Source of the DNA: Polytrichum commune
Taxonomy: Eukaryota > Streptophyta > Polytrichopsida > Polytrichales > Polytrichaceae
Assembly: GCA_950295325.1 (NCBI GenBank)
Contig: OX485806.1
Location: 26,474,001-26,538,000, forward strand
Direction: 5' to 3'
DNA length: 64,000 nucleotides
Both the position numbers and the translations under genes were made by a program. Each line of letters starts with the position of its first letter. Positions within the stretch are counted from its first letter, which is position 1. Positions 26,436-54,181 of this stretch are shown here, piece after piece. The notes beneath the pieces were generated by a model. That model did not search any database. It saw nothing but the letters and a program-made list of their open reading frames with translations, and was not told the origin of the DNA.

Positions 26436-27428
26436 ATGGCGAATGCAGTAAGATTGTTACGCCAGTCTAAACACCTCCTCGTGTCTGTCATATTCGTCAT
26501 CACCGTTTCCCTCGAAGGTAATTAAATAAGCACTTGAGCTCATCACTAGATACGTGAGATTAATCTATTTTAATTACTTGATCACTGATCTGCAGCAGTT
26601 GTAGCAAATCATCACCACTTGCTGCGAGTCAAGATGGCTTCTACAAAGAAAGGTTACATGGATAGTATCGTCAACGTGCAAGACTACCCTTACTTAAAGC
26701 AACAGCACCTCGCTGGCCACGTACCTCCACGAAAGTCTCTCGCCTTCACACACAATCCTATTATTCGGAAAGCGGGTACTCTGTTTCAGCCAGTTTCGAA
26801 TTGTGAAGACGTCGACGGTCCTCAGTGTAGCAACAATCACACAACGTGCGAGGATGAAGGAGGCCTCTCGCATGTCCACTATAGAGCTTGTGCGGAGCCG
26901 CTCGACTGGGATCACCACCCTGTCCTCCTCAACGTCAAAACAGAGACGCGAAGAAAGTTTCGTCACTGCAAGCTGCAACAGTGGCTAAGCCCGATGTGCA
27001 CAAGGCAAAGTCACGAGTCCCATGAGCCATTCGACAAGTACCTGCGCCGGTGTTACATTCACGCGAACGAGGAGCTCAATTCCAATGGCCGCTCCAAGCA
27101 TCTTCTTGGACGTGGTGACGATCTGCAGTTCAGCTACCTCGATGCGTATGTTTACCGTCTGTTCCATGGCACAACTTTGAAACTAGCTAAATACGGAGTG
27201 GTTTACCCGCCCTTCGATGCAAACTTATTCCTCCAGCTCTTGCGAGAGGAGTGCGTGCTGCTAGACACGCAGCCAGATTTGGACTTTAAGAAACACATGA
27301 AAGAGGCGGACCGACTAGTGAGACCGTCCAACAAGCAGGAGGAGAATTACATCAAGATTAAGCAGCTGAGCCAACCCATGAGTTTGGGGCTTACACTTGA
27401 ACTCGAACGCCATGCCTGGCATTGCTAA
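26436..27428 (+). CDS. Family gene A: uncharacterised protein of the four-paralogue family, with predicted signal-peptide exon
   Basis: Proposed as two exons, 26,436-26,517 and 26,596-27,428, giving 304 aa. The intron of 78 nt has donor GAAG|gtaatt and a tandem acceptor (tgcagcag), both alternatives in frame. Exon 1 encodes a basic start followed by a hydrophobic stretch (LLVSVIFVITVSL) and EAVVA, which looks like a secretory signal peptide. A longer in-frame start exists at 26,334. Without splicing the gene would start at 26,634 (MASTKK, 264 aa). The shared core spans about residues 126-260: CAEPLDW, RRKFRHCKLQQWL, YLRRCY, GRGDD, YRLFHGTTLKL, GVV and LLREEC. It converges with gene B. The function is unknown; I recognise no described domain. 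The core ORF is firm and the first exon is an inference. Confidence 0.65.
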
Positions 27429-28273
27429 GAACACGATCATGCAGGAGATGCCGCATCGCCACTGCACCCTGACCGAGACGCATTTATTTTGGCTTTGATT
27501 GCTGATTCTCCAGGACACATGAAGCACTTAGCGCTAGCTTTTCCTCGACCAGGAAACATGCAGTCAGAGCGGGATGCCTAGGACGTCGGTGTGACGGTGA
27601 GGCATCTTACTAAGAGTGATCTCTGCAGTTATCAAGGTCATGTTTTCTCTAATGTAAAGATCATCTGTCTGAAAATCCGTGACTTCTTCTGTAGCTTATC
27701 ACAGCATGCCATGTCTCCTGCATAATTGCCTCTCCGGAAGTAGCCTTAGTTAAGTGCAACTTGTGTGCAATCGAATTTGAAGTATTGACAAGCATGATCA
27801 AGAGGCGAGAATCGAGATGCATACTCGACACCAAAAGCGAATTATCTGGTAAAGCGATCAGAGCTGAAACCTATCCTTGGGATGAGTGTGGAATGCAGGC
27901 TCCAGGATTCCATGTTCACAGGTCATTGCAATCGGCGCAATTGCATTTTGCCTGGAAGTAGAGATCAACGAGAATTGCAAATCTCTTGAACACCGGTGAG
28001 GGGCATTCGAGAAGCGCAGAATATTTGTTACTAATCTCGTCCTAGTGGCGACTAATTTAGAAGACGCGGTACAAAGGCCAGCTCTCGCCGATCATCTGTG
28101 CTCAAATTTATAATTAGTTCAATACAAGTACAAGGTGTGTGAAACATAGAGCTCTAGCGTATTTCGCCTAGTGACATGTGGGATGTGAGGGCGTTGGAGT
28201 AGTTTGTGGACAAAAATTCAATTCAGAGTCATAGTCCATGCATATCCCTGACCTGCGGCAGCGTGAAAGATGC

Positions 28274-28277
<4 letters not shown>

Positions 28278-28346
<69 letters not shown>
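28278..28346. repeat. (AG)n microsatellite, about 34 units
   Basis: An uninterrupted AG run of about 69 bp, the longest simple repeat in the window, between convergent genes A and B. Confidence 0.97.
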
Positions 28347-28349
<3 letters not shown>

Positions 28350-28397
28350 GAACCTAACCAGAGATTGTGGCAGTACTATAGTTAAGTTACAGACACA

Positions 28398-28608
28398 GGG
28401 CACGCTGCACAATAACATCCTTCATCTTGAGAACAGATCACCTAAAAGAAACCTCAAAAACCTACTTATTTCTGTGATACTATGTCTATCCCTAAGAAGG
28501 GCACGCTGCACAATAACATCATTCATCTTGAGAACAGATCACCTAAAAGAAACCTTAGAAACCTTAGAAACCTACTGATTTCTGTGATACTACGTCTACC
28601 CCTAAGGA
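28398..28608. repeat. 101-bp tandem duplication downstream of gene B
   Basis: Two near-identical copies begin gggcacgctgcacaataaca at 28,398 and 28,499. The second has a 10-bp internal duplication (ccttagaaa repeated). It lies about 230 bp beyond the 3' end of gene B. Confidence 0.9.
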
Positions 28609-28833
28609 ACATACATGTCACAGCTGTAGTTGTCTGCTAAATTCCTTCCAACAAGTAAAACCGATCAAACAATCTTCACGTTCCGACTCTAAACACTGAA
28701 TGCTTCCAGAAGCTTATGCTATTTCAGAGTCAATCCTTGAAAGATCTGCTCCTATAGTTGCTCACTTTGCCTGCAACACCTCCATAAGAACAGGAATTGA
28801 TAAACAGCTTACATTATGCATTATAACTCAACC

Positions 28834-29514
28834 TTATATCCCAACAAACACGCCATGGACTGATGCAAGAAAGGCATGATGAGATATTCTTACATAGCAG
28901 TCCTTCCCTGCTCGGCTAGACGAGCAGTGAGAGCCTTCATGCGTCCAAGTTTCTCCAGATTTCATCTGCTGCCTGGGGTCAGGGATGATTTTACGCGCAT
29001 TGTAGAGCTCCATAACCTCCTCCCTCAATATCGACAACAGATAGTTCTCTTTGGTGTTGCCAAGGGTGACCCCGTGCTTCTGCAGATTGAGCTTCGTCCC
29101 GTGCCAGAGGCGCCAGCAATACCTGTCGAGGAAATGAGGGAACTCGTCTCCCATGCACTCCCTATTGACCGCATTCTTGTTCAGCTCACGTGTGGCTACG
29201 GCAAATGCTCTGCCTATATAGTGGCCGAAGCATTCCTTTGTCTGTCGCTCCACCAGATTGTCGAGCCATTTCTGAAGCTCACATTGTCGATAACACGTCC
29301 TGTCCTCCGGTTTGATATGTTTCAAGTCCGGAGGGGGTGCACATGGCTGGCACTTTGCCAGCGCCTTCGGACTCTCCGGTCCTCGAGGGGAGCATGTGGT
29401 GCTGCAGGGTGAGAAATTGCATGTCTCACCTCCACTTTTATTTGCTCCAATGGCCAAACTTTCGCATTCGTTATTGGCGCAACCCCCCTTGTCGCATGGC
29501 CGTTTATCACACAT
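28834..29514 (-). CDS. Family gene B: uncharacterised paralogue with Cys-rich N-terminus
   Basis: Single-exon ORF of 226 aa from an ATG (MCDKRPCDKGGC). The N-terminus is unusually Cys-rich with regular spacing (C2, C7, C12, C17, each four residues apart, then C32, C37, C41, C55, C58), unlike the other three paralogues. The shared core runs from about residue 58 to 185: CAPPPDL, EDRTCYRQCELQKWL, GDEFPHFLDRYCWRLWHG (122-139), GV (148-149) and ILREEV (162-167), followed by PDP. In-frame sequence continues upstream of the ATG for about 14 codons after a possible acceptor (ctttctag), so a further 5' exon is possible, but I found no convincing one. Function unknown. Its orientation converges with gene A. 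Confidence 0.7.
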   Translation of the reverse strand: MCDKRPCDKGGCANNECESLAIGANKSGGETCNFSPCSTTCSPRGPESPKALAKCQPCAPPPDLKHIKPEDRTCYRQCELQKWLDNLVERQTKECFGHYIGRAFAVATRELNKNAVNRECMGDEFPHFLDRYCWRLWHGTKLNLQKHGVTLGNTKENYLLSILREEVMELYNARKIIPDPRQQMKSGETWTHEGSHCSSSRAGKDCYVRISHHAFLASVHGVFVGI

Positions 29515-29849
29515 GGTTGTTGCTACTTCGATAGCGACGCTAGAAAGTCCTGATCAAACCGGTCTCGAGTGCGCTATCGAAGACCGTCAACCTGGTGGAC
29601 AAATCATTAGTTGTTGAATATTCCAATATCCTGATGAAATCCGAGGTCCTAAGCCTCGAGTCTGAAGAGAAAGTACCGGTGCGACCCTCAGTCGACTCGC
29701 TCTTCTAGCAGGATCAACTGTGTTGCTGAATTGGACTCAAGGATACACCACCATAGATGGCGGGAGAAGAGACGGTTGGTCTCCAACAGTCGTGTCCGTT
29801 GAAACTCCATCAAACTGTTCGGTTCACGAAACGTCATCGATCCAGAAGT

Positions 29850-30760
29850 CAACACCGAAATCCAGCACTGCTCGGCGACTTATACACGCTCTACACAATC
29901 CTGAATGCGCTGGTAGACTAATTGTGCGAAGAGGTAATCTATCCATCTATGACGATACACTCCATGGATTGCAAAACTTAACGGTGAAATTGGTCATTCC
30001 GAAAAAGTGGCTTTTACCAATCACTTTCCGGCTGAGGAGACATCCCTGACTGGAGTGGCACCGTGTGCTCCAGACCATGCTTGTGGTTCGGAACAACCGA
30101 TGGATGAAATTAGAAAGCAATATCTTCCAGAATTGAACACCAAACCCAATCCTGCAGTACTCGGTAAATTATGGATGATGCTGTATAAAAGCCCGAGTGC
30201 CCTGCAGAAAAAGCTGAACTAACTATTTTTCTGCAATCGGTCCTTTTAAGTGACCTTTCCTGGGAAGATCTATCCATGTATGACGATATACTCCAGAAGT
30301 GCAAAATTTACCGGTGAAATTGGCCGTTCCGAAATGGTGGCTATTACCAATCATCTTTAGGGTGAGGAGACATCCACCGGAGTGGCACCGCATGTCTGTG
30401 GTTCCGAAGAAACGACGGATGAAATAATAAAACATTATCTTCGAGAATACAACACCGAGCTTATCAGCACTACTAGGCGAACTATACGTGCTGTATACAA
30501 GCCCGAATGCCCTAGGTAGACTAACTATTTTTCTGCAATCGGTTCCTTTCAAGTGACCTTTCCTGCGATCTACGTATCCATCTATGACGATATACTCCAG
30601 GTTTGCAAAACTTACCAGTGAAATTAGGCGTTCCGAAATGGTGGCTATTACGAATCACCTTCAGGCTGAGGAGATATGCATGGCTGGAGTGGCACCGTAT
30701 GGTCCAGATCATGCCAGTTCTGAAGAACCGATGGATGAAATAATTGCACAATTCTTCCGT
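29850..30760. repeat. Tandem array of about 300-330-bp units with broken coding sequence
   Basis: The landmark atccat(c/g)tatgacgata recurs at 29,941, 30,272 and 30,576, each followed by similar sequence (gcaaaa.ttac.ggtgaaatt, gtggct.ttac.aatca, ggctgaggaga, gatgaaat). A partial earlier copy ends at about 29,935 (ctgaatgcgctggtagacta matches cccgaatgccctaggtagac). The units keep partial open frames (for example the peptide block VAP.(A/G)PDHA..(S/E)EEPMDEI) but are separated by stops and indels, so this looks like a duplicated and decayed exon. Confidence 0.8.
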
Positions 30761-31136
30761 CTTCTGATGAATTTGGGAGTGAGAAACCTGACAGAGCCGT
30801 TACGATCATCCTTCAAGAGTCTGGGAGTCATCGATGGTGAGCGTAACAACCGGAAGCCAATTAGTGACAGCGGCTGGGCGCAGTTATTTCTCCCTGGCCG
30901 TCATTTCTCCAGATTGAGGTTGTCGCTGTTCGGTGCCAAAGAATGAAAACCTAGTTCGATGCGTTGAACTTGCTTGTTGCAACAATCACTTAAAATCTTC
31001 CCTGGCAACTCTCAGCATCTTCTTCATTCTGTCTGTCAATTCTTTTCTATCTTGGAAGTGGACAATTGGCGTCGTGTATTAAACAATACCGAGTTACACA
31101 AATAATCCCACCGTGATTACATACCTGCATTTTCAA

Positions 31137-32889
31137 ATGCGCTCGCTATCACCAGTGACTGAAACCTGCGTCGATGGCGTGAATGAGAATCCTATCACGA
31201 CCTGCGCTGTCTGGGCCCCCGAGTATCAGAAATTTATGGCCACGATGCGGCGTCTCACCGCAGGATGCAATACAGGGCCGCCGATGTCGCAATGGGACCA
31301 ACTGTGCCCCAAATGTCAGGAGGTTGTTAAGGAGCAGGGTTACGAGTCAGAGCTCAAACATGGACCGAGCTTTCATGCGCAAATGGTACAACTACAGGCG
31401 GAGAAGAAACTGAAACAATTGGAGGACAAACTTCATGAAAGAGAAGAGACTGAACGTGCGTTGCAGGAGCAGATGATCTTCTTGTCTACGTGGGATCCTA
31501 TTGTCATGAGCCCCGGGCACACAGACATCATCTTGCAATCGGGCGGCCATGTCATCAATGCTCATCGAGCAGTGCTTGTAAATATTCTCTTGCCATTAAT
31601 CCATAGACTACCATTAACAAATCCCCATGCCCATTCACACACCGAAAGTCCAAATTCATAAGCTCCGTGAGCTTTTCCATCTGCCAATCTGTAGCAATAC
31701 TTTCGTACATTCCCAGGCCGATTCAACCTGCCACAAATATAACCTCATCTGGCACAATTCACTTTTACAATTGCGTTCTCTCAAATGTCGAATTGACATT
31801 ACGATTCCTATCTTTTAGGGTTCCTAACTGTGAGGTTTCCGATTGCTTGCTGTGCTCTCTGAAACCACTTGGTGCGATTAAATGACGCATCTGCACATAG
31901 GGTGCGCATGCCAGCTGCTTCGGAGAGACTCCATTCCAAATACACGAGAGCGATAGGGGAGAAACTTCCATACGTCGAAGGTGAAGTCCGTCGACGTTCT
32001 GAAAGTAGATAATGTGAAGACACAGGGTTACAGCCATCATAGAAATCGATGCAACTTAAATCCGTTCTTGCTGAATCACAACGTCGTCACATCACACCCT
32101 GGCGATGGCAACCAAAAGCATCATGATTCAAGTGGCGAAAGATGAGACCCGCAGGTTCAACTCAGATTGTTAAAGTACATGGATTGGAAAACGCACTAGT
32201 TCGCAGTCCATTCGCATTCCTTTCTAGATACAGCTACCGGAAATTGAAACGAACAGATCTTAGAAACCTACATATTTTCGATAATCCAGAAAAGTATGTC
32301 CTCACTACTTTGTGTCGATTGTTAAGGGAAAAATACTTCAATTAAGCGGTCAATACATTGCGTCGAGCACATTTGGTCAGTATGTCAAGACACCACTCAA
32401 TCTGTACAAGCTCTCTAAATTGCAGCCTAAAACGTGAAAACCTTCGTGCAGGCTGCAAAGTCGGACGTGATATTGAAGAAGATGAAAGGAAACCTGGATC
32501 AACTGGGGACAGTCACAATGGAGCTTCAGATCTTCCCCGAGTCGTTGGAGTCATTTGTGCGCTATTTCTACACAGGCCATATAAGCCACAGGGACCTCAA
32601 GAGCCATGCGTCCAAGCTTCTTACAGCAGCCAAGCGGTACGGCGTCAGATCCTTACAACTCATTGCTGAGCGTTACATTGCGAAACATATTTCCAGAGAG
32701 ACAGCTCTAAGTACATGGGAATTAGGTGTTGACCACAACTCAGAGATTATTAAAGAATCTGTACTCCAGGTTCTTGCGACCGATGTACAGGACATTCCTA
32801 AACTTGGCGAATACCGCACATACCGGTCACAAAAGGATCCTGAGCTGCTTGTTGGCCTATTTGAGAATCTCATCGGAAGGATAATTTGA
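31137..32889 (+). CDS. BTB/POZ-domain protein, At4g08455-like
   Basis: Two exons, 31,137-31,577 and 32,452-32,889, encode 292 aa. The splice (GTGCTT|gtaaat ... gtgcag|GCTGCA) restores the BTB motif HRAVL-AAKSDV without a phase change. The N-terminus carries a short Cys pair (C57, C60) and a likely coiled coil (about 80-116). The BTB/POZ fold spans about 128-225 (DIILQSGGHVINAHRAVL, then FVRYFYTG). A C-terminal helical segment resembles the end of Arabidopsis At4g08455 (KDPELLVGLFENL). BTB proteins of this kind are usually substrate adaptors of CULLIN3 ubiquitin ligases; the target is unknown. The start is the first ATG; an upstream in-frame extension lacks ATG. The 874-nt intron contains nothing recognisable. 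It converges with CCB2, 126 bp from stop to stop. Confidence 0.88.
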
Positions 32890-33015
32890 CCAACAACTCA
32901 TTCGTGATAATGCATTCAATGAATGTGGAGAAAAGCCAACATATTCACAGAAAAGAAAATATATTGCAAAACTGTTTCATTACACAGTAAGTGCATCCTA
33001 CTCTACTTACTTCCA

Positions 33016-35219
33016 TCATCTCAATATTTCAGAGAACTTGCGTGCCAGCATAGCTACCCACGTCCTGTCTTTGTTGCTGTATCCTCGAGGTTGATACGAA
33101 ATCAGGATCACACCTCCAGCATGGTTGACATCACTACTTGCTGGGAAAGGTTGCACCAGGAGTGATTTTGCATCCTCCGGAACCAACGCCCACCCTTTTG
33201 TGTCTGCGCTGACAACTTCAGCTACATGAGCATCACTCACTACCAATTTGACATTCTTACTACTGTTTCAATCGGGCCTTATCATAGAGTAAATAGAAAC
33301 AAGTTGAATGAGAAATCCAGAATTACCTGCACTGTTAGAAATGTATAGAGGAGCACTCGATTCCATGAGAGGCGTTTTCTTAAGGTTGTCCAGTAACAAT
33401 TCTAAAGCCTTGGCACTTCCAACCTCCCAGCTTCCCCGAGCACACAAAACCTCCCCTTTATACCAGACAATCTGCACAGAAGTTGTGGAAAAATGCAAAT
33501 AGCTAGATAAGAAGGCCCGAGTAGGCTGTTGCTTGAAATTTGAAGACATCAAGAACTGTTTTACGACTCCACTCTAGTAACAAAGAAAGATGACCGTGTC
33601 TCTATTCATCCACATTACTGGAGGAAATTCGGGCATAGAAACCAATGCTGTGCGACTAGAAACATCAATATGGATGATGTAGTCGATTCAGGCGAACAGG
33701 AACAAAGTGGTATACCACAGCACTTGTTTTGGTGTTTCGGAGAAGAGCATAGGATCCCCATGCCAGCTCTTGCTTTTGGTTATTGGCGAGCGTATCTGAG
33801 AGTGAAAATATTGAGTTGCGACCTGTGACCTTGCTGCCATCACTCTCAGCATCTCCTCCCTGCATTAGGTAAGCATACATTGTTGTTGAGATGAAAGCAC
33901 TGGTGGAGTACAAGAAGTTAATGAACAACTCGTGCAACGAACGATTCTGAATGGCTCAGAGGAAATGTTTACTCACACAGAAGGGTAGCGGTTCATACTT
34001 TGAGGCGATGGCCGACAAATGGGAGACTTATTGCCACTGAAGCTAGAAATAGCCCGAAAGCCTCTGACCTCTGTCACAGACAATTGGTTGTGAGCATTCG
34101 CATATGTCAAAGTATGCAATTTTCATGTGGTCGGAATGCAATTTGAGGCGAAGGCAATACCAGTTGTGCACCAGTCATGGAGTCAAGGCTGACAGCGTGG
34201 TTGAGAATTATGAGGCTGCCAAAAAAGAAACCGACTAGCCGAGGCAGATCAGTATCGTCAAATCCGGGTATTCCTGTCATAATTTCCGATACCGTCGACA
34301 TCAATTTAAAGTCTCAGAGTAAGGCAGGTCGATGTTGATCGGACATAGCAAATAAATGAACACCTACTTTAATTTAGGGAGGTTTTGGAACTAACGACTT
34401 CATTAAAGTGACGTTGACCTTCCATGTTCACAATCAGACGAGAAAGATGCTTCATTTAGAGTTGAGACCCAACAACTATATTCATGAAGGAGGTGTCCTT
34501 AATAAGAAAGCCCTTGCACCCAACAACTTGTTCCCCCATCTACCACCCTTGATCCGATTTCGACGTTGTTATATTTACAAAGCTTGAGTGTCCAACTTCA
34601 ATGTTTCTTAAATGATGGATTTAGGATACGCGAGTGCCCATGCTGGGGGACTGGCAGGGAGTCATAGTTAGACAACAACATGGCCGTCCGTTTAATGAGC
34701 AAGAGAACCTTGTCTTTGGAAAGTCACAGATAAATCCCACGTCAACGAAACTTGTCACCGATTGTTTTGGTGTTCTCCACATACATTTGCAAGTAACTAA
34801 AAAATGCAAGTACTCGAATTCCTTATATTCGGCCACAAGAAGGCGTAAATATGTGAAAAGCGTCTATTAACACCGGTCTGCCTTACAGGCACAACAACCA
34901 AGCCTCTCCATGTCCAATTGAACCTCAAACATCAGAAAGTCTTCTCAAATTTCAGAAGCTTACCAAGAGTGAAGCGGAAGATAGAAACATCGACCTCTGT
35001 GGCTGGCTCATCATCCCCAGCGGCCCTCACCACCCCTAGCTGTCCCCTCCTACTCTCCCATCTCCTCAAAGTCGGACGTGCAGTTCCCACATTCGCAGAA
35101 CCACTTAACCTTGGGGCGGTGGCAAGCATGGCAGTACGGAAATTGCAGAGATGCCGATAGCTTCTAAGCAATGGCAACGCCCGGACACAGAGTTCGTTTT
35201 GCACCAACGATGTAGCCAT
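33016..35219 (-). CDS. CCB2: CCB2-type cofactor assembly protein of cytochrome b6f (DUF2930), chloroplast
   Basis: Six exons on the minus strand: 35,219-34,964; 34,273-34,161; 34,070-33,999; 33,859-33,716; 33,471-33,327; 33,221-33,016. All junctions are GT-AG and phases match, giving 311 aa. The first about 75 residues are Ser/Arg/Ala-rich without acid, a chloroplast transit peptide. The family signature follows: SIFRFTLG-IPGFDD...LPRLVGFFFGS (TM1 about 98-113), RSEAFGLFLASVAISLPFVG (TM2 about 128-144), then a stromal domain with LAWGSYALLRNT, GEVLCARGSW, SLLVQP and KDRTWVAMLARKF. CCB proteins attach haem c(i) to cytochrome b6 (system IV) in the thylakoid membrane. CCB4 is a related paralogue, but the motifs fit CCB2 better. 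The upstream side carries a 195-bp tandem array. Confidence 0.93.
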
Positions 35220-35348
35220 TACTTAAGTATGGCTCAAGAACACGACCCTTGTGTCCAAAGCTCACAGTACGCGAGGCTTCAAATCGAAGATCCCCACTTG
35301 AATTGCCATTACACTGGAAGAGCCTCATCCATAGGACACACCTGGCGG

Positions 35349-36135
35349 GAGTCACCAACCAGCATAGACTCTATTCAAACCCTAGCATACTCATTGCAAT
35401 CTTCACACCATACACCTCAAATCCTTCGCAATAGTCCTCCTGCAACCAGCTGGAACAAGTGCAAGTGAGTTTCTTCATACTTTTCTACTAGATTACAACG
35501 TAATTAAAACTGTTTGAAGTGAAAATTGGCAATTCTGGCGAGTATCACCACCAGCATGGGCACAACCAAACCCTAGCATTATCAACGCAACCTTCAAACC
35601 ACGCACCTCAACCCCCTTTCAAAATTCCTACATAATGCAACCAGCTGGAACAAGTGCAAGTGGGTTTCCTTATATGCCGCTTCTATGTGACAGCGAGATT
35701 GAAGCTGTTTAAAGTAAATTTTGGCAATTCTGGCGAGAATCACCCCATCACGGACAGTACCAAACCCTAGCAGATCAATGCAATCCTCAAACCCCGCTCC
35801 TCAAACCGCTGTCAAAATTGCTACTTATTGCAATCAGCTGGCGTTACAAGTGCAAGTGAATTTCCTTATACGCTTCTACTAGCTCAAGACGAGATTGAAG
35901 CTGTTTGAAGTGAAGTTTGGAAATTCTAGCGAGAATCACCACCATCATGGATACTACCAAACCCTAACATTACCGATGCAATCCTCAAACCACGCTCCTC
36001 AAACCGCTGTCAAAATTGCTACTTATGGCAACCAGCTGGAGTTGTAAGTGCAACTGAAGTTCCCTATACGCTACTACTAGGTCACAACGACATTGGAACT
36101 GTTTGAAGTAAAGATTTGGCAATTGGGGAGAATTG
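35349..36135. repeat. Four-copy tandem array, about 195-bp unit, upstream of CCB2
   Basis: The landmark caaccagctggaacaagtgc recurs at about 35,440, 35,637, 35,829 (caatcagctggcgttacaag) and 36,026, giving periods of 192-197 bp. Each unit also has aaccctagca, ctcaaa.c, tggcaattctggcgag and gaagctgtttgaagt. It begins about 130 bp upstream of the CCB2 start codon on the gene's 5' side, so it occupies the promoter. Confidence 0.9.
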
Positions 36136-36608
36136 TGTGGAGCAAAGAAACGCGATTCAGGCGCAGACAATGCAGCTTGGATTCCAACAGTTTAGCTACT
36201 GCGACCACTGTAAGAGGAGAGATTCGTTGTGTGCACATGCAATTCAACAGGAAGTTATCTGACCCGAATTTGAGAGTTTTGGAGACCATGTGTTGAGGAA
36301 AGCTACAGCTTACAATCTCAGGAAGGCGCAGCGAACGCAATTCGCGAGTGCGGGGATATGATAGCCATCCGCGACGGAGAAGTACACATGGAGACTCAAA
36401 GAAATCGTTTGGATGGATTGGATATGGATGAATTAGCTCGTATGGATGAATGTGACTCAGATAGCTTGGACCCGTGCTGTCCCGCCGCGTTGCGTTGTGG
36501 TTATGAACTATGCAGTTATGAGGATTTTGTAATAGTAATTAATAAAATTAAAACATTTTTATTTCATTTCATTTCATATTTTAAACTTTTCTTGTTTCAA
36601 CCCAAGTG
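36136..36608. other. Short interval with an unassigned open frame
   Basis: An open frame at 36,358-36,639 (+) begins MIAIRDGEVHMETQ and is acidic in its first half, with no recognisable domain. It might be a fragment of a lost gene; I do not call it a gene. Confidence 0.3.
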
Positions 36609-38463: not shown

Positions 38464-38480
38464 TCCTCTTGAAACTAAAA

Positions 38481-38888: not shown

Positions 38889-38899
38889 CCATTCTAGTC

Positions 38900-41050
38900 T
38901 CAGCTTCCACTATTAGATTTGTCTTGGCATTTTTCTCAACCTCTACCCTTTCACTTGCGGCTTCAACCTCCATCGCCTACTCCATTTCGACGTCCATTTG
39001 TTGGTTGACATGTCTCCTTGTTATGGATGCCATCTTTTTCCCCCTCCCTATGTCCCCCAATAGCAACCTCCTACACTTATGAGTTAGTGGCGAGGGGCTA
39101 ACTTGACTCATCTTCGGTCTTGGCATGCATGCCTCCTCTGTTGCAATCGCCCTCCTTTCCTACGCCCTGGATTTCTTCTGCTCCCTGTCCTTCTTGGGTT
39201 GCTAACCCCTTTCCAGTCTGTGCTCCCCTACTTCAATTACCTTCTTGGTTTGTGTTAGTTAGCCTATCTCCGGTGGGAGGTTCAACAATTCCTTTGAGTT
39301 GGCCCATGTTTGTTCCAACTTGCTCTACATCTTTACCCGTAGCTCTTGTTGTTGGGTTGCCAAACCTGTCCTTTTCCAGACAGTTGCCCGGTTGTTGTGC
39401 TACGGTAGTAGCCGCAACCCCTATTATTATTTGAGTTTCCCTTGTTGGATGATAATGGTTATCTACTAACTCTCTTACCTCCTTTTTGGGATCCGTGACA
39501 TGCTCTCTTATATACACATTTCCATGTTCAAATATGTTTCTCCTTGTGTTTTTCTTGCTCTTAACCTCTTGAAATCAATCTTGATCCATTTCCATATTTT
39601 TGTTTTTTTCGTGTTGCGGTATATAAGATGCATGCATTGGCCTTCATCTTCCTCTGATTGGCCTTTTCTAAAACTCCTTGCAATCATTGGCTTTGTGTTT
39701 CCATCTTAGACAAGTTCTACATCTAATAGGTAGTTTACCATAATCAACCAAAAATTAATTTCTATGTGGGCAAAATCCACCCCCCCCCTCAGATTCTAGA
39801 TCTATTATGGTTGCCTATTCTTAGCTTATCTCAAGATTAATGCAAAACCTCGGAACTTTGGCATTTTCATTTGCAATATCTATACCTATTACTTCCCCAA
39901 GAGTTTCAACTATGGCAAGTGCATGATCTCGGTGTTCAAATGGCATCTTTCTCAAACTAACCCAAGTTGGAAATGCAAGGTTGTTGGGGTTGTCAAGATT
40001 GAACCATGGCATCCAACTTTGAGTCATACATATTCCCAACTTAGATCTAAATGGTGATAACATCAATGCATTGTGAAATGTATCCCTATCATCCCCACGA
40101 AGTAAAAATAGCCTTTTCCCAAGGTTCCTACAGATCATTAAGGTGCTCGCTCTAAATTCATGATTTAGGGCTTGGATCCACAACCTCATTGCTTGGGGAG
40201 GAGGCTTGGGCCCTACAAACTTTCTGATCAACAACTGGTCTTTCAATAATATGATACGTGCAAACAACATTTTTTAATTAACTTTGAACTTAATGGCGTC
40301 TTTCCTCACCAGGAACCCATTGAAGTTTCTTTCAACATTTGATGGCAAGATCTCACCATGTTGTCCTCTGATTGGATTGGGATTTCCTACCTCGATCTGT
40401 TTATTTGCCTCCGCCAAGATTTCAATCACCGCGTCCTCCATCTCGACATCATGTTGTTGAGCCTCACCAGCTATCCATCCACCCCTTTGTCATTGGGTCG
40501 AATCTAGGTGCGCTCATGTATTGCACTTTTGTAGCGAAGGTCTTCATCACCATTCCGTGAGATTTGTTGCTCCTAACTTCATTTTTTGGTTATCGATAAT
40601 GCAATTTACCCCAAATCCATATATGTCTATCAAATTCTATCAAGTTCATATCTTGCCCTCCTAACCTAAAAAAACCCCAATGAAGATCTCTTTTTGATGC
40701 ACCAATTAGGCATCGGTTCCAACACATTCTCAATCTTCCTACCCTAAACCAATCTGCATCTTGTCCCCCTCATTGCACTGATCCCAATGAGTGCTCGATC
40801 TGGGCAGGGCTTTGCCTTCGTTTCCTTGGGCGAGCCATCCCCCAAATTCCCAATCATCGTGTTTCTCCCCAACAACCAAAGACTTGTAAGCCTTGTGGCC
40901 GGCATTCCCACCTCCAGAAATGAATTGGCCATTGTCTCACCTTGTTGGCAATTGTGAATCACAAAGATTGTCATTTTAAGTTTTAGGATCAGTGTTGAGA
41001 TACAAGAGATGTAAGAGTCCAATGTCAAGAGTCTCTTACTCTTCAATTAA
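38900..41050 (-). mobile_element. LINE ORF1 relic (DUF4283-like domain plus CCHC knuckle)
   Basis: Minus-strand frames resemble the ORF1 of plant non-LTR elements. At 40,270-39,821 there is a DUF4283-like stretch (GKRLFLLRGDDRDTF, SWMPWF, WVSLRKMPFEHRDHAL, LGEVIGID, RFCINLE). After a break, about 39,745-39,670 encodes LPIRCRTCLRWKHKANDC, a complete CX2CX4HX4C zinc knuckle. Upstream frames (41,046-40,744) and downstream frames (39,517-39,233) may be parts of the same polypeptide. Stops and shifts show it is dead. No reverse transcriptase was seen. Confidence 0.7.
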
Positions 41051-43120: not shown

Positions 43121-43151
<31 letters not shown>

Positions 43152-44890: not shown

Positions 44891-45098
44891 GTTTGAAATT
44901 CGAAAGACCCGGAGGCAACGGATCAGGATACGTTGTGTAGAGTTCGTCGTTCGCGTGAGGGGAACGTTCCGAAGACAAGGCTATCAAGGCTTCCCTTCAC
45001 CGCCACAATTGGCTCACATTGCTTTCCGTGACCTCCGCTTTCTCCTCTTCTTGCTCCTTCAGCTCCTCCCGTTTTTCTCCATCATCTTACGCTCTTCG

Positions 45099-46579
45099 GT
45101 AAGCATCTCATCTTAGATTTCTCTGCTTGGACGGCCAGCCTTCACATTGCATTTTTTGTTTCCGGTATATGTGTCATTCGATTACCTGCTCTTTTTTATC
45201 AGTGAAGTGTATGTCCTATGTCTATCCACCTCTCTCTATTTTACAGCGACCTGCATTGTCGTTTTATGAACTTGTGTCGTGCCGGGCCAAAGATCTGATC
45301 ACATTTTGTGCTGTCTTCGGTGTTTTTCTTACTTCATAAAGTGGCGGGCGTGATATGCCCTGTTTTGAACCTCGCGTTTAGATTTTCAGTTCATTCTTCC
45401 ATCTGTTTAAATTCTTTTTTCTTTCTCTTTCTCCGTTTCTAATTCTTGTTTGTGATGTCCCCTATTTCCAAGCCCCAGGCATCATGGCAGGATACATGCT
45501 AGGATGTATTGGTGCTGCAAAGTGACTTGTCCCCTATAGTTGCCTGATCTGTTCTTTTACTGCCTTCTCTTTAATTTCTGCTGTGGAAGTCTGCTCTCTG
45601 TTTTAGCATTATTGGTGTCAGAGGTATAGATCAGACTGGTTGGTGAGATCTGTATTATTGGGGGTTTTTAGGGTTGAGATCATCGCTTGTGTGGTAGTGG
45701 GTATGCTTCGTGGTTCTTGTTTAGCGTTCTGGAAGGTGTAGGACGGACTGGTTAGTCTGCCTCGCGGAAATTGGAAAATTTCTGGGTATGATGAGAGAAT
45801 TATATGTGCGAGTGACCTGTGCAAGTTCATTTCGGGAAGATTTTGCTGTAATGTGATGTAGATGTCTGTAGATAGTGTATGTCTTTCGATATACATTTTC
45901 ACACGTTTCATCCTGGGTGATCCTGACTTTCTTGCCAAAGAAATTCAGAGAAAGTGGACCCGGGTCTTGATTTTTGTTGAACTCATTGGTTTGAGGAGGA
46001 CCGTCATTTTTTGAATCGGAGGGAATACAGATAACTCTAATTTGTCTCCTGTACTGAAGCCGCTGGTTGTAATTGTGAAACCATTGGTCATTTCACAATG
46101 TTGCATCCCTCGGTTCTTCAACAAGTTTAATGTCTTGCGACATACATTTTGACACACAAGCTTCGTCCCTGATCGATCTGGACCTTCTTGCCAACACTTG
46201 TTAGAGCAAGTGGATGTGGTTTGCATATTTGTTTCACAATGTGTGAGTGTGTTTTGTGTTTGAGGGATAGTGGAGAACTCGAATTTGCCTTGTCTACAGC
46301 CGTGTTTTGTTATAATCATAAAATCGGTGGGCAGTTTCAGAATATAGCGTAACTCATTCCTGACTTCGATATTCGTATTCATGATTTCCCGATAAAATAC
46401 AAGGTTGTGAATGCCAAGTCCTGATAGTAACTATAGCTGTTGCATCACCCTTCTTTCACTGGCTTCCCTTGCATTCTAGAGAGTACTCGAGAAATGTCTC
46501 ACAAAGTACAGCTATTTGTAGATAGGCAGAGCGTTTGCAATTAAGCATCATTTGTTCTAATCTCGCTCTGTTTTCACAG
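45099..46579 (+). other. Probable 5'-UTR intron of the DUF1218 gene
   Basis: A CT-rich leader ends at a good donor (CTTCG|gtaagc at 45,098/45,099). An acceptor (ttttcacag|TCTGG) at 46,579 lies 32 bp before the ATG. The intron of about 1.48 kb carries an internal duplication with period about 250 bp (tgtctt.cga.atacatttt at about 45,880 and 46,131). Leader introns of this size are common in plant genes; without RNA data this is an inference. Confidence 0.55.
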
Positions 46580-46611
46580 TCTGGTGTGAGGTGTGGAAAG
46601 TGGACATCGAG

Positions 46612-47727
46612 ATGGGGGCGTCCTCCGGTATTGTACTAGGTGTCACTATGTTTCTCTACATATTGGCCTTTGGTTTGTCACTTGGAGCAGTGACGAGAAG
46701 GAGCAAGGTGAGTCGTTGATGTTCTCGTATTCCATGAATTGTTTGAACGTTTTTGGTATGGCTCTCATAGTTCTTGTCATCCCATCTGATGAGAGTTGGT
46801 TATGATGGCAGGGAGAGTTGAAGGCAATCGATCCTACCACTGGGCTTTTGCAGTGTCAGTACACGTCTGACATAGCAACTGGCCTCGCAGCTGGTGCTCT
46901 CATTTTCTTGATCCTCGCCCAGTCCTTCATCATGATTGTCACACGCTGTCTGTGCTGCGGGAGTGGCTACAAGCCCGGAGCTGCCCGCACATTTGGTGTG
47001 TTGATGTTCATCATCTCTTGGTGAGTTCTCCACGGCAATCTCTCTGTTGGCCTCTCTGGAAAATGTAGTTCCATCAATGGAGTCTTCAATTGGTGAATTT
47101 CCTTGTGGAGACGTATCAGAAGATTCAGACAAGGACCCATGCAGATTGGTATACATGGCCCTGGTTAACCGGTTCCCTACTCATTCGAGTGTTTGCGGCA
47201 TTTGATTTGTATTCTTATGTCATGGTGTAACTTTCAATAGCTTCCTTTTGATTACTTCGCATTGAGTATGTAACTCTTGAATGCTTTGGATGAACTTCTC
47301 TGTTGATTTCTCTATTTTATGGTTTAGTTGCCTCTATCTGTAAGTTTTTTTATCGGTTATCGCCATTTTCTAGAATTTTCATTTGGTGGTGAAATTAGGG
47401 AAGATGTTGAGGATTTGGTAATGTGGTGCAATACTGTTGACGCGAAGCTACATCGTGGATGAATGCAGGTTGTGTTTCATTATTGCTGCCGCAACTCTAC
47501 TAGCAGGCGCAGCTCAAAACAAGATCCACACCAAGGGCTATGGCTACATCACGGGACCTACTATCACGTGCAGGCAAGTGCGAGAGAGTTTGTTCGCTGC
47601 AGGGGCAGCCTTCACTTTCCTGACGATGTTGTTCACGGAAGTGTACTACGTTCTCATCTCCAAAGCTAGAGATAGTCATGATTGGCAGTCCAGTCCCCCA
47701 TCTGTAGGCATGGCATCCTACACCTAA
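46612..47727 (+). CDS. DUF1218 (MWL/VCC-type) four-helix membrane protein
   Basis: Three exons, 46,612-46,707, 46,812-47,020 and 47,469-47,727, join in phase to 187 aa. Starts MGASSGIVLGV. Four membrane segments are visible at about 7-26, 53-75, 93-114 and 144-166. Conserved cysteines occur between them (C47, C78, C80, C81, C136), matching the DUF1218 pattern in which the first two helices are separated by a loop with DP..G.LQC.Y. Members are endomembrane or plasma-membrane proteins; Arabidopsis ones influence lignified walls (MWL) or vein and leaf symmetry (VCC/DESIGUAL). The role here is not determinable. Length and exon number are typical. Upstream lies a leader intron and a motif-rich promoter. 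Confidence 0.92.
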
Positions 47728-49325
47728 TTGCTACGAGAATTTCTTTTAAATTTGTGCAGGCTAGCGAATAGTTAGTTTACAGTACTCACATGCAGACATT
47801 TCATCCTCTAGATGAAATGAATGTATTCTTTCAGGCCTTTAGTTTTGTTTCTTTCTCCACGCTTACGATGATCGTGAGCTTGTGTATTTTGAATCCACTA
47901 AGAATTTATCAGGTTAATGTTCTATTCCCACAACTCACGCTCACGAGAATTTCTGGGTATTACAATGCAGATGTTCTTTCTGGTCTTAATTGTTCATAAT
48001 TGCTTTCGAGCTTCTTGTAATCTTTAAAACAGTGCAGATGTGGATTACACAGATACAGAAGGATGATCTATTGTGATCGTGAGTGTACCTGAAATCTTCA
48101 AATATAGGTATTCCTACATATCTTCGAATTTATCTGTCAAAGACCAAAGGCTGCATTTCGGCAACCTCTTAGTGAATTTTCTTTCGAGACTTGACCGTTC
48201 TAGATATATCGTCCTTTCGGTGTTTTGATTCCAAGTTTGTACAACTTTCTTCCCAGAGTTGAATTTTGTAACATTTAAAAGGGTGGAGATGTGGGCTATA
48301 ACGGGGATACAGAAGGGTTGTTGATTCGGATTGTTAGTCTTCCTTACCTTTCCACGGAGGAGTCATCTGCTTCACACGGAGTCTTTTAGCTGTCGCATTC
48401 TGTGCCGGTGGATTTTGTGGAGTTCGCGTTTAGCTAGTATTTGAATTGCAGCTGTCACCATTTGTGTACTGAATACGCTTCCGATGTTCTTCCAATTCGC
48501 ACGGGCTATGTATTGCTAACAGTGGGAAATGAAGTGACTGACTCGTTATCTTTTGAATCACATAAAGGAAATTTGTGCATTGGGCTCGGATAGTATTGAG
48601 GTATGGCGAATCTGAGATACATAGTAGTGGTTCGACAAGGTAAAATGCCGATCTAGAGACCTAATTAATACAACTGATCTAGCAGCATGAGTATTTAAAG
48701 TTGTGAAATTCCTCATAATTCATCTCCTTCGATACTGTCGTGTTCAGCAATCCAGTTCACGATATTTCCTAGTTTTAATCAAACAGCGTGACTCGTGGTG
48801 GAAATAGTGTCGGTATGGATGTCTTGAGAATTTCTGGCCGCGTCCGTGAATTGCATTGCTGGGATAGATTGCAAGTCGTCAGAATCTTCGTCTCCTGAGG
48901 TGGATTCGGTGGAATTAAGGGTTAAGGTGGAACGGTGCGCAGGCATAAGAAACCACCGAAACGGTGTGATGTTACGATTTCAAAGGTCGGGTGGCCACCA
49001 TAATCGCATGTACTAGGTAGAGCTTGGCTTCGTCTTTAACCTCACTGTCACAGCAACCTGTGTCTCTTGTGTATATCCTGTGGTGAAGAGTACCATCACG
49101 ATCAAGGAATCGAAGCTTTCTAATCTCTGATTTGGAGCGAGGACAACGGCCGGCGATTCGATCACGGCGACATTTTTTTGCTTGTATGTTTCTGTGTTTG
49201 AATGTGAATTCTACTGACAGCTCATTGTTGTACCGTACTGATCTTGGTGGAATTTTAGGTGTGTGATCGATCGCCTTCCATCGACCGGCCTGTGGGTTCA
49301 GGTAAGTTTTCGAACCCTAGCCATC
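47728..49325. other. Interval between the DUF1218 gene and gene C
   Basis: Probably 3' UTR of the DUF1218 gene followed by the gene C promoter. A diverged tandem duplication is visible (tgtaatctttaaaacagtgcagatg at 48,018 and tgtaacatttaaaagggtggagatg at about 48,270). A strong donor-like caggtaagt lies at about 49,300, 20 bp before the gene C ATG, with no acceptor that would make a viable intron before the ATG. Confidence 0.45.
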
Positions 49326-49946
49326 ATGTCGAACCGCAAGAATAAGCTTAATCCGTTTACAGAAACCTTGTATAGCCAGAAACCTGCAGGATTGGTTGCT
49401 CGGAGAATTGAAAGGACCGCAGATTTCGAACCGGAGGAGCCGCAAGGCGCAATGTCTGCATGTGTAAATGCCCCGCATACTAAAGCGGATTGGATGAACG
49501 ATCCGGAGCGTCGAAAGTACCGGCACAAAAAGATCGAGGAGTCTATCGATGACCTTTTACACAAGATGCCAGAGGAAAGCTTCGACGGGTACCTCGAGCG
49601 GTGCTTTTCAACTGCAAATCTTGCGTTGAACAATGCGAACAAGGCTACGGTTGGAGATGAGTTTCCTAATTTGGTGGACCGATGGGTGTGCCGATTTATT
49701 AAAGGGTTGAAGTTGGTTTCGAGGAAGACGGGTGTGGGGTGGACTGTGGAGGAGGAGACGAATTTGTTTAATTTAATTCGTGAGGAATGTGATATTCTTT
49801 CCGCGCAGGATGTACAGTTTGTTGAAGATCGAACTAGTGTGCGTACCGCGAAAAGATCATGGGAGAGAGAACGTCATGAAGATGAGACTCATCCCACGGA
49901 TTACAGAGAAAATATAGGCGGAAACACCAGGCAAAACATAGAGTAA
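49326..49946 (+). CDS. Family gene C: uncharacterised paralogue
   Basis: Single-exon ORF, 206 aa, starting MSNRKNKLNP. The open frame extends upstream to 49,263, but the ATG at 49,326 fits best (gccatcATGtcg). A basic N-terminus is followed by the family core, about residues 49-160: DPERRKYRHKKIEE (59-72), PEESFDGYLERCF (82-94), GDEFPNLVDRWVCRFIKG (110-127), GVGW (136-139) and NLIREEC (149-155). It lacks the Trp of the WL motif kept by A, B and D. The C-terminus is charged (RSWERERHEDE). No signal peptide or membrane segment. Function unknown. The last 20 codons lie inside a tandem duplication that continues downstream. It converges with gene D. Confidence 0.75.
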   Translation: MSNRKNKLNPFTETLYSQKPAGLVARRIERTADFEPEEPQGAMSACVNAPHTKADWMNDPERRKYRHKKIEESIDDLLHKMPEESFDGYLERCFSTANLALNNANKATVGDEFPNLVDRWVCRFIKGLKLVSRKTGVGWTVEEETNLFNLIREECDILSAQDVQFVEDRTSVRTAKRSWERERHEDETHPTDYRENIGGNTRQNIE

Positions 49947-50335
49947 TTAGTTTCACCAGTATAGAAGAAATCTGGATGATCGACAATAAGCACTAGTTTG
50001 AATAACGAGTTCTTGTAGAATAAAGAATCATTCTCTGTTGTCGATAAATGAGTTTTCACTTTGAAACCTGATGGTTTATCATCCCTTGCAAGAAGCAACC
50101 TGCACATAAGTACTCATCCCACGGCCGGATTGCAGAGAATATATTGGCGCACACTCTAGGCAAAACATTGCGTCATTAGTTTCACCAACAGCGATAAAAT
50201 CTGGATAATGGACAAAAAGCACTAGTGAAAGGGCAATCTCTGTTGTTGTCAATCACTGATTCAATGATGAGTGATCAATTTGGAATCCTAATGATCTATC
50301 GCTTGCAAGAAGGAACGTGCACATAAGTATTTGCC
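49885..50335. repeat. 227-bp tandem duplication containing the last 20 codons of gene C
   Basis: actcatcccacggattacagag at 49,885 recurs at 50,112 as actcatcccacggccggattgcagag. The match continues through tagtttcaccag, aaatctggat.at.gacaa, aagcactagt, tctctgttgt, cttgcaagaag and gtgcacataagta. The first copy includes the stop codon of gene C; in the second the frame is lost. Confidence 0.9.
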
Positions 50336-50689
50336 TCCAGTAAAGGTTCAAGTAAAGCCATCTAGAACGAATTGGCGCAATTCTGCAGGTTCATCATTTC
50401 GATCGATTCTCAGAGATTTATCTGGTAAGAGTCAACTGTTTTCCACATTTATCGTCATGTGTGTTTATAAATGTCATATCCTTGAGGCACATTGTGGTCA
50501 ACAATTTGTGGCGCGCAAGGATCTCGAATTACTGCAAAGCCTTACAGCGGACTGAACTGCTGGGGCTCACAGGTCCCCTGTTTGTTGTTGTAAATACAGA
50601 TACCTACTTGCACTTTGCGTTGAAAGTGTTCCACGCTTGCAGCAGAGATTTAGGGATATTGAGTTCTCCTTAACTGACTTACATTACCA

Positions 50690-53640
50690 CCAGATCATTC
50701 AGCTGCAAAATTCCACGAGTATGTATGCACTCATGTAGCTGCCTTGCAAGTCAAAAGATGGTAATCTTGATGGTTATAAATCACAGAGCGCGCTCAAAGT
50801 GCAGAGATTATTAAACTGCTATTGTATGTATTGACGAATATGCACAGACAACAAACAACAATCCATAGAAGATAGACAGTATTCACGTATGAAATCAGAT
50901 CTTTACTCCACTCCATCAGTGATTCTACAACTGGTAACGACAATTCTCTCTACCTGCGCTACTGTCCTAATATCAACCCTGTGGTTGAGTGATTCTACGA
51001 AATCGATGAATGAATCTAAGATGGATGAACATATTGGATGAACGAACTAAAAACTGCCAAGATGACAATTGACGCTGACGTAGTAGAGGCAGTAGTGATT
51101 AGTAGTGATCAAACGAATCCGGCGATGTCTAGGGCGTGTCATAGATTCCAGCTCGTCATACATCTAGTCTGATTAATGTTACACCGATTACTGAGGTAAT
51201 GGAGTTTTGCAATTGCACTTGTTGAAGACACGGTCATATATCAAGACCTAATGTAGTAGACATTGATCTTCCTCACCGCGAGTCCATTCGAGTGATAGTA
51301 TCCAACTGTGGAGGGATGGATCCGTGAGCACCAATTATCTGGTTAGCAGCAGAGGTGATAATGTCTGGGTGCTGAAGTCTTTCCTAGGAACTGCAGCAAG
51401 GGAATAGAATATTATAAATGTATACTACTCTTCATGTGGACAGAGTATGAAACTTATCAACTGACTGGTGCTTTGTCCTCCAATTATGCACATTGGATAA
51501 TTCTGCTGCAAAAATCCATGAGTCTGGTCTCTAATTGCGAGCCAATCCACGGTTCTTGCTATCCCGGAATCAGGACGCTCACTTACAAACGATATCTGGT
51601 TGCAGATTATCGAAGCATCAAGGTGCACAGAATTCTATACTAACAATGAAACTGAGATAATAGCAGTAGTGAGTAGCCTCTTATCTTGAGTGTATGGGAG
51701 TAACTGGATTGATGATAAAAAAATTCAGTGCCACTACGTTCATCCGTAAAACCATTTAGAATTAGTCGAAGTGCACAAGGCACTGTCTCACACCTCCGGT
51801 GCTTGTCTTTCTGTGGAACAAACTCAGTGGGCTATATCTCAAGAAGACAGAAGAGAAGGTGTTCAGTCTACATTGAGCGAAAACTTTATGATTACAAGAT
51901 CAGTGCATTTGATGAAATCTTTTTCATAGATCCGGAAGATTACTAACATGGCATTGGTTCTTCTAACCTAGCGAACCGCCTAGACGAGGTTATGATCATA
52001 GACAAGATTATGTCCAACAGCGTAGTTTCTGCCTGGGCGGACGTGAAGAAAGAGCATCAGACAACGCCTGCTTCGTCATGATGCACATCTCAATATTCAA
52101 GGTAACTTGGATGAAGAAAATGATATCGTTTGTCCCCAGAGGTACTATCTCATGTATTGATGCTCGATCCAAACCTTCTCATAAAGAGCAACATAAGCGT
52201 GGCGTTGCGTGTTTTAAAGATTTGAAGAGCAGGTCTAGATGTTTTAATTGTGGCAAGAAGGGTGAGCATTGGACTGCGGATTTCCGGGAGCCACCGAAAC
52301 GAAACAAGGATAAACATGCTGCTCGACTCATAGGCATTAGCGCAAGCCTTGCGGATGCACTAGCTTCAACAACAATTTCTGATGATGACTTATAAGAGAA
52401 TTCAGATGAAGAGCCAATATGCGCGATCCTGGTATCTACTTTTGCACACATACTTCAGTTCTTTAGGAGTGATAGTATCCAGCTGCGGAGGGATATCCGA
52501 GAGCTCAAATTGTCGCATAGTCTCGTATGCCCATCATTCAGTTGCAAATTCCATGAGTCTCGGCGATCGCCTCTACGGCTCTTGCTGTCAGGAAATCCGG
52601 TTGCTCACGTCTAACCGAGATGATCACTTGATGGCTATGATTAATTCACAGCTATTCGAAGCGCGGTCAAAGTGCACGCAGAGTAGCCTAAAATCAATTC
52701 GATGAAGCTGAAAAGGACACTCAGAGAATAGCGGGAGTGTGTTATTCCAACTCGTAAAGTTAAACATTCAGTCTGATGAATGTTATTGACTGATTACTGA
52801 GGCAATGAGCTTTTTCTTAATATCTTGGACTGGTTGAACAAATAATGATCACTTGTCAACACCGATCTTTCTAATCTCGATGGTATCCAAGTGAGATCCT
52901 AGCGGCAGTGAGTACGTAGATTCACACGAAATCAAGGATGCCTAGGGTACTATGTCATAGATTCCAGCTAATAATGTTTCACCGACTAATGTGGAAATTA
53001 AATATATCAATTGCGCTGGTTGAAGACAGACATGGTCGTCATCAACACCTAATCCGGTAGTCACGGATCTTTCTCATCTTGAGATTAAGCGAGTGATAGT
53101 ATTCAACTGGAAAGTGATCGATATCCGTGAGCTGAAAGTCTCGCGTAATGTCCTGTTCCCGACCGTTCAGGTGTAAAATTCCATGTGTGGTTTATCGGTA
53201 AGTTTCAACTATTCTAGCTGCCTTGCGAGTCATCAGGAGATGGTTCAGCCTGCTGTCCGGGAATCAGGTCGGTCACGTCTAAACTCTGGAAGGCTATTAG
53301 TCGCAGATTATCGAAGCGCGTGCCAAAGTACATACACAGAATCCTAAACTGTCAATCGAGCTGAAATTAATGACACTGGTATAATAGAGGCACTGAGCAG
53401 ATTTCAACTCGTGATGTACATATGCTCTGATGTCTGATAAATGTACAACGAAGACTATGGCAATGAGATTTTTCTTGACCCATTCTTAATTTCTTGCAAT
53501 GGTTAAAGAACAGGTGACTCCGATGTAGTCAAGACCATATCTAGCCGACACCGATCTACTTTCTCACCTCGAAACCATGCGAGTGATTGTATCCAGCTGG
53601 GAAGGGATATCCGTGAGCTCAAACTGTCCCGTAAGTTCCT
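50690..53640. repeat. Decayed tandem array derived from the 3' end of gene D
   Basis: The segment that encodes the gene D C-terminus (gcgagtgattgtatccagct.ggaagggatatccgtgagctcaa at 53,578) recurs at about 53,089, 52,468 and 51,288. Associated downstream sequence (ctgattactgaggcaatgag, ctggttgaa.a, acaccgatctttct) recurs at about 51,185, 52,785, 52,975 and 53,450. Further partial matches (ccatgagtct..., gcgcggtcaaagtgcacgca) lie at 50,700-50,830, 51,500-51,640, 52,550-52,690 and 53,200-53,340. Units are roughly 490-620 bp and diverged. A copia gag fragment sits inside. Confidence 0.8.
52078..52395 (+). pseudogene. gag fragment with defective CCHC knuckle (copia-like)
   Basis: A 105-aa frame contains RCFNCGKKGEHWTADF, a CX2CX4HX4C zinc knuckle whose last Cys is replaced by Phe, then REPPKRNKDKH. 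This is the pattern of the gag nucleocapsid of Ty1/copia elements. No pol is present. It is probably an old insertion into the gene D-derived array. Confidence 0.6.
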
Positions 53641-54181
53641 TCCCTGGCCACGGATACTGCACTGGATGGTTGCACAGCCTGGGGTCGATTTTGAGGCGGC
53701 CTACGTTCACTAACTCCACACAGGCTTCCCGCAACAACTGCAGCAGGATCTCCTCCCACCGTATCCCCCACGAGACTCCTTGCACGTTCTGCCGCATCCG
53801 GGCTCCCATGAACAACCGGAACACGAACCGGTCTACGGGGTCTTGATACTCGTCACCGATGTGCACCTTCTTGTTATGCTTGAGCTGAAGCTCCGCGGTC
53901 ACGTAGCACCGATTGAGGTAGTTGGCGAAGCTCTCGCGCGGCAGCCTTGGCACTTGCGTCTCCAGCCACTGGGTTATCTTTCGCTCCCGGTACTGAGCGC
54001 GGTCGTGTGGGTTGACAACCTTTAGCTCCGCTTGGGAGGTCCATTCTGGAGGCTCCGCGCACTTCCTTCGTTCGCTTTCACGCACTACTAAAACTCCGGA
54101 GCTCTGGTTTAATGGCCGCTTCCAAGCGCAGCAGTAATCCGTGGTCGGTCGTTGCTCGTGGTAATTGTGCGGTGCAGCCAT
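53564..54181 (-). CDS. Family gene D: uncharacterised paralogue
   Basis: Single-exon ORF, 205 aa, ATG start (MAAPHNYHEQ). The core spans residues 41-165: CAEPPEW (41-47, matching CAEPLDW of gene A), HDRAQYRERKITQWLE (59-74), PRESFANYLNRCY (81-93), GDEYQDPVDRFVFRLFMG (109-126), GVSW (135-138), LLREAC (149-154) and IDPR. It has no signal peptide, membrane segment or known domain. GC is higher than the flanks. Its C-terminal coding segment is the source of the tandem array downstream. It converges with gene C. Function unknown; an intact ORF amid decayed copies suggests selection. Confidence 0.75.
   Translation of the reverse strand: MAAPHNYHEQRPTTDYCCAWKRPLNQSSGVLVVRESERRKCAEPPEWTSQAELKVVNPHDRAQYRERKITQWLETQVPRLPRESFANYLNRCYVTAELQLKHNKKVHIGDEYQDPVDRFVFRLFMGARMRQNVQGVSWGIRWEEILLQLLREACVELVNVGRLKIDPRLCNHPVQYPWPGKELTGQFELTDIPSQLDTITRMVSR

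What the first reader, a model, noticed from the sequence alone, without database searches (positions are those of the whole stretch)
26436..54181. A four-member gene family with a core domain I cannot assign
Genes A (26,436-27,428), B (28,834-29,514), C (49,326-49,946) and D (53,564-54,181) share in the same order: a pre-core (C/N)A(E/P)P..(W/L) (clear in A, B, D), R..(Y/F)R...(I/L)..(W)(L), E.F..Y(L/I).R, GD(E/D)(F/Y/L)....(D)R...R(L/F)..G, GV and (L/I)LRE(E/A)(C/V). Identity between members is low by eye while the motif order and spacing hold and all four frames are open, which suggests long retention under selection. Directly seen: the shared motifs. Inference: a real family of unknown function. 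No known domain, catalytic triad or transposase signature was recognised.
Basis: partly seen in the sequence, partly recalled or inferred. Interest (0 to 1): 0.9.

Follow-up and report, generated by a model that had tools for sequence, protein, structure and literature searches.

The report
Unassigned four-helix plant protein family
Four neighbouring plant genes, with five more elsewhere in the same genome, encode small proteins that share a helical domain matching no described family or solved fold we could check; they look like real, long-kept genes whose job is unknown.

Summary
Genes A-D share one core domain (blastp 31-37% identity, E 3e-13 to 5e-24 among the four). B, C and D sit at the stated coordinates; A is open only from 26,589 (first ATG 26,634): the frame from 26,436 has 5 stops. 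Three searches of the plant's own 408 Mb genome return the same nine loci, none with a stop in the matched stretch. Member H has a GT-AG intron inside the core whose removal restores the motif. Fourfold sites are saturated (212 of 732 same, 192.5 expected) while codon positions 1 and 2 stay conserved: long purifying selection. Nine core rows fold confidently into four helices (pLDDT 89.6, pTM 0.84). No Pfam, NCBIfam, PHROG, PDB-sequence or fold match convinces. Protein databases were off, so distribution outside this plant is untested. Best reading: a plant family of small, probably non-enzymatic interaction proteins with variable tails on a four-helix domain. Function is inference only; interest moderate.

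The parts
26634..27428 (+). gene A, coding sequence from first ATG (264 aa); open frame extends up to 26589
26880..27311 (+). gene A, core domain used in alignment A3
28834..29514 (-). gene B (226 aa), Cys-rich N-tail plus core
28945..29358 (-). gene B, core domain used in alignment A3
49326..49946 (+). gene C (206 aa); the ATG is supported by full-length similarity to paralogue I, which begins at its own first Met
49446..49850 (+). gene C, core domain used in alignment A3
53564..54181 (-). gene D (205 aa); paralogue E aligns to its last residue
53642..54079 (-). gene D, core domain: the sequence modelled by AlphaFold2 (helices at model residues 24-39, 51-68, 81-99, 106-125)
50112..50329 (+). 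tandem duplicate (73% identical) of the 3' end and 3' flank of gene C (49887-50112)
51241..51329 (-). decayed copy of the 3' end of gene D with flank (77% to 53529-53618)
52467..52514 (-). decayed copy of the 3' end of gene D (90% to 53581-53628)
53069..53154 (-). decayed copy of the 3' end of gene D with flank (76% to 53559-53640)

Best explanation
Genes A-D belong to a nine-gene plant family of small proteins without any listed domain. Each has a variable hydrophilic N-terminal tail (Cys-rich in B, F and G; Gly/Ser/Asp-rich in H), a domain of about 120-150 residues made of an extended strap (C-x-x-P-P-[DE]-W in the clearest members) and four helices, and in six of nine a short C-tail with an aligned Trp. 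Shown: the homology, the open frames, the purifying selection, one in-core intron (from the sequence), and the confident fold prediction. Inferred: the domain is a non-catalytic protein-protein interaction (adaptor or scaffold) module, and the differing tails give each paralogue its own partner or place. The family grew by old duplications both local (the C4 cluster) and dispersed (C2, C3).
For: Homology. Nine loci, 9 of 9 without a stop in the matched stretch; queries D, B and H exon 2 return the same nine (G only at E 0.014 with B). Selection: over 36 pairs of nine genes, fourfold sites 212 of 732 same against 192.5 expected, codon positions 1, 2, 3 same in 44, 51 and 31% against 26-27% expected; pS 0.69-0.90 against pN 0.38-0.51 in the 11 of 36 pairs computed. 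Intron in H: GT-AG, 988 bases, splitting an Arg codon; the spliced product reads AYRQNRLEEWL. Fold: nine rows give pLDDT 89.6 and pTM 0.84, four helices, the strap well defined at model residues 11-20. Tails: 61-78% of residues are G, S, D, N, P, H, E, K, R, Q or T. The residues invariant in the nine-row core alignment are R, E, F, R, A, L, D, G, E, L; no Cys or His is invariant in that alignment, which argues weakly against a Cys/His enzyme or a zinc site (my reading).
Against: No functional datum of any kind: no expression, partner, localisation or mutant. The adaptor role follows only from size, fold class and lack of an obvious active site; invariant Glu, Asp and Arg exist, so an acid/arginine-based enzyme is not excluded. 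Nucleic-acid binding is not excluded either: core charge varies from -4 to +6, which speaks only against one uniform binding surface. Without protein databases the family may be wider, or already named, elsewhere.
Confidence: 0.45

Rival explanations
1. Domesticated retrotransposon capsid (gag-derived) family: the core would be a host-kept capsid-like helical domain.
For: All-helical core; by eye the order E-S-F..Y..R..F..G, then an E-rich helix resembles Retrotrans_gag (recalled, not a database result). Retroelement traces lie near by: DUF4283 at 39824-40270 (E 5e-9) and a weak CCHC knuckle at 52078-52392 (E 0.14).
Against: No gag model among Pfam matches at E up to 10 for 4 full-length proteins or 9 cores; HMMER's filters drop most matches above 0.1. 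Nine mutually old copies, a lower bound by the tool's own note. No capsid row seen in the listed fold matches (not an exclusion). Profile-profile comparison with gag was planned but the search for gag copies did not complete.
Confidence: 0.1
2. A component of motile sperm or cilia (microtubule inner protein or axonemal adaptor) kept in plants with swimming sperm.
For: Only plausibility: small helical proteins with hydrophilic tails. The genome is a green plant's by its CCCTAAA telomeres, but its group is unknown.
Against: PDB sequences searched with the nine-row profile show no axonemal hit at E up to 10. The test for axonemal dyneins in this genome could not be run.
Confidence: 0.08
3. A degenerate P-type cyclin-like fold.
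For: By eye, helix 2 and helix 3 look like motifs of P-type cyclins (recalled, not a database result).
Against: No cyclin model among Pfam matches; no cyclin among PDB sequence hits; a helix that cyclins have between those two (recalled) has no counterpart in the four-helix model.
Confidence: 0.03
4. Pseudogenes or chance open frames.
For: Decayed copies of the 3' ends of C and D lie next to them, so the locus does produce debris.
Against: Nine of nine loci without a stop in the matched stretch; chance of each open frame 4e-7 to 4e-4 by base composition, and the codon-position pattern.
Confidence: 0.02

Closest known systems
Taxonomically restricted ('orphan') plant gene families
   Same: Small, unnamed, no listed domain, scattered with a local cluster
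   Different: Here an old multi-gene set with saturated synonymous sites and a confidently predicted folded domain, not a single young gene. Restriction to a lineage is not shown, because protein databases were off.
Retrotrans_gag / LTR-retrotransposon capsid (Pfam PF03732, number recalled)
   Same: Helical; superficially similar motif order (by eye)
   Different: No Pfam match, nine old copies, and no pol domain by Pfam in the four window proteins
PUF repeats of C. elegans FBF-2 (3qgb) and FBF-1
   Same: The only PDB sequences matched at E up to 10; 3qgb at full-sequence E 5e-4
   Different: The sum of weak stretches; the best single stretch has i-E 0.2, and no PUF protein other than FBF-1 and FBF-2 is listed; judged chance

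Membership tests
Retrotransposon gag/capsid | sequence match to a gag model | tested here: not met
   no gag model at E up to 10 for 4 of 4 full-length proteins and 9 of 9 cores; profile-profile not run
Retrotransposon gag/capsid | capsid fold | tested here: inconclusive
   no capsid row seen in the rows listed; absence from the list does not exclude it
Retrotransposon gag/capsid | LTRs and pol next to it | not tested
   no systematic LTR search of the nine loci; a comparison of frames of 60 aa or more (E 1e-6) in about 10 kb on each side of E-I found only the family genes in common with the window, plus one 48-residue match at window 7377-7568
P-type cyclin | match to a cyclin model | tested here: not met
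P-type cyclin | five-helix cyclin box | tested here: inconclusive
   four-helix model; no direct superposition possible
PUF/Pumilio repeat protein | repeated PUF helices matching along the chain | tested here: not met
   no PUF model; best single stretch i-E 0.2, FBF-1 and FBF-2 only
Taxonomically restricted plant gene family | no homologues outside a lineage | not testable with these tools
   protein search switched off; GTDB prokaryote scan with the D core gave one chance hit; IMG/VR scan with A1 none; no plant collection on hand
Taxonomically restricted plant gene family | retained coding sequence under selection | tested here: met

The most novel reading that the evidence does not exclude
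The core is a new small protein fold: a Pro/Trp strap plus a four-helix bundle, founding a plant-restricted family of adaptor or regulatory proteins that has kept nine members with different tails since before synonymous sites saturated.
Probability: 0.3. Interest if true: 0.72.

Novelty: new member of a known kind. Interest (0 to 1): 0.5.

Why it matters
An old, selected gene family without a name or a recognisable domain is one of the gaps that limit functional reading of plant genomes. Nine aligned sequences and a confident fold model make this one testable: a profile exists to find its reach in other plants, and one compact domain is a clear target for structure and partner searches. If the fold is really new, it would add a domain to the catalogue.

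Full report
WHAT WAS CHECKED. The window lies at G000:C4:26,474,001-26,538,000 of an unnamed 407.8 Mb genome in 64 contigs. Of five contig ends fetched, two carry CCCTAAA arrays (155 and 139 copies in the first 9 kb of C4 and C2); the other three were partly or mostly N and had 9 or fewer copies. That is the plant-type telomere, so this is a green plant; I could not place it further. B, C and D are exact open frames at the stated coordinates; A is open from 26,589 with its first ATG at 26,634, and the frame from 26,436 holds five stops.

THE FAMILY IS REAL. All six pairs among A-D match (E 3e-13 to 5e-24 in a database of the four), and each score stands far above 500 shuffles (best shuffle 64 against 132-205). 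The motif order is as described.

IT HAS NINE MEMBERS. Searching the genome with D, B and the second exon of H returns the same nine loci: A-D on C4, E (33.83 Mb), G (1.63 Mb) and H (41.20 Mb) on C2, F (8.90 Mb) and I (45.48 Mb) on C3. With D all nine are at E 1e-9 or better; with B, I is at 8e-4 and G only at 0.014; with H the weakest is 1.2e-4. No matched stretch holds a stop (9 of 9). One search also lists two hits at E 2.2 and 8.9, which I treat as noise. The tool calls such counts lower bounds, and A and C could not be used as queries. Closest pairs: B-F 47%, D-E 43%, C-I 41% over aligned codons. C and I align from their first Met, D and E to their last residue, which supports those ends. 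E's start is unresolved: its only in-frame ATG before the pre-core Cys lies eight codons upstream of it, and the open stretch runs on further.

GENE STRUCTURE. H has a GT-AG intron of 988 bases inside the core, inferred from the sequence. It splits an Arg codon, and splicing gives ...DHQAYRQNRLEEWL..., the family motif x..YR...L..WL. In the other members that stretch is continuous or, in G, divergent. Whether the intron was lost by the others or gained by H cannot be told: the tree leaves H's place weak.

SELECTION. Across all 36 pairs of nine genes, fourfold-degenerate sites agree in 212 of 732 cases against 192.5 expected from composition. Codon positions 1, 2 and 3 agree in 43.9, 51.3 and 30.8% of 6621 codon pairs, against 26-27% expected. 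Pairs are not independent, so these are descriptive. In the 11 of 36 pairs computed, pS is 0.69-0.90 (dS infinite in 10, 1.92 in D-G) and dN 0.52-0.86. The duplications are old and replacement sites have been held back: purifying selection over a long time. A ratio between species could not be computed.

WHAT IT IS NOT, AS FAR AS TESTED. No family in Pfam for A-D beyond one hit of E 0.17; for nine cores, only single-member hits of E 0.01-0.14. PHROG and NCBIfam: nothing convincing for the four. PDB sequences: FBF-1 and FBF-2 only, judged chance. Viral contigs: none. Prokaryote genomes: one chance hit.

HOW IT MOST LIKELY WORKS. Shown: family, selection, predicted fold, variable tails (18-245 residues before the pre-core Cys, 61-78% hydrophilic or disorder-type residues, up to 15 Cys; G's pre-core Cys is an uncertain alignment, E's start is unresolved, and H's tail may be longer). 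In six of nine (B, C, D, E, F, I) the C-tail keeps a Trp in a similar place (by eye). Inferred: a soluble, non-enzymatic interaction domain with paralogue-specific tails. I give this 0.45 because nothing functional was measured. Gag domestication, a sperm or cilium part, and a degenerate cyclin were weighed and rank lower.

LOCAL HISTORY. Both C and D are followed by decayed copies of their own 3' ends: 49,887-50,112 repeated at 50,112-50,329 (73%), and the D end echoed at 51,241-51,329, 52,467-52,514 and 53,069-53,154. These look like slippage or unequal-exchange debris evolving without constraint (inference).

VERDICT. It is a solid plant gene family with no name that I could find, and possibly a new fold, but without function or distribution it stays a moderate finding.

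Noticed in passing
window 49887-50329: A unit of about 225 bases holding the stop codon and 3' flank of gene C is tandemly duplicated at 73% identity.
   Followed up: partly
window 51174-53640: Several diverged repeats (66-90%) that carry copies of the 3' end of gene D and flanking DNA.
   Followed up: partly
window 22588-24054: Long open frame of a RING-H2 gene with an N-terminal zinc ribbon (Pfam zf-RING_2 E 7e-14, Zn_ribbon_19 E 9e-12).
   Followed up: no
window 31113-32886: Probable BTB/POZ gene in at least two exons between the A/B and C/D pairs (PF00651 E 2e-6 in 32434-32886; the exon join is my reading).
   Followed up: no
window 39824-40270 and 52078-52392: Retroelement traces: DUF4283 (E 5e-9) and a weak CCHC knuckle (E 0.14).
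   Followed up: no
window 35342-36124: Tandem array of a 198-base unit, 4 copies.
   Followed up: no
L028/L029, upstream of H: The open frame of gene H extends further upstream into a long Asp/Asn/Gly/His/Ser/Tyr-rich tail.
   Followed up: partly
window 49299-49307: A strong-looking donor (CAG|GTAAGT) lies just before the ATG of gene C; its use is unknown.
   Followed up: no
L020:3795-4279 and L027:5444-5940: The flanks of F (C3) and G (C2) share two frames at 51-56% identity, perhaps a dispersed repeat.
   Followed up: no
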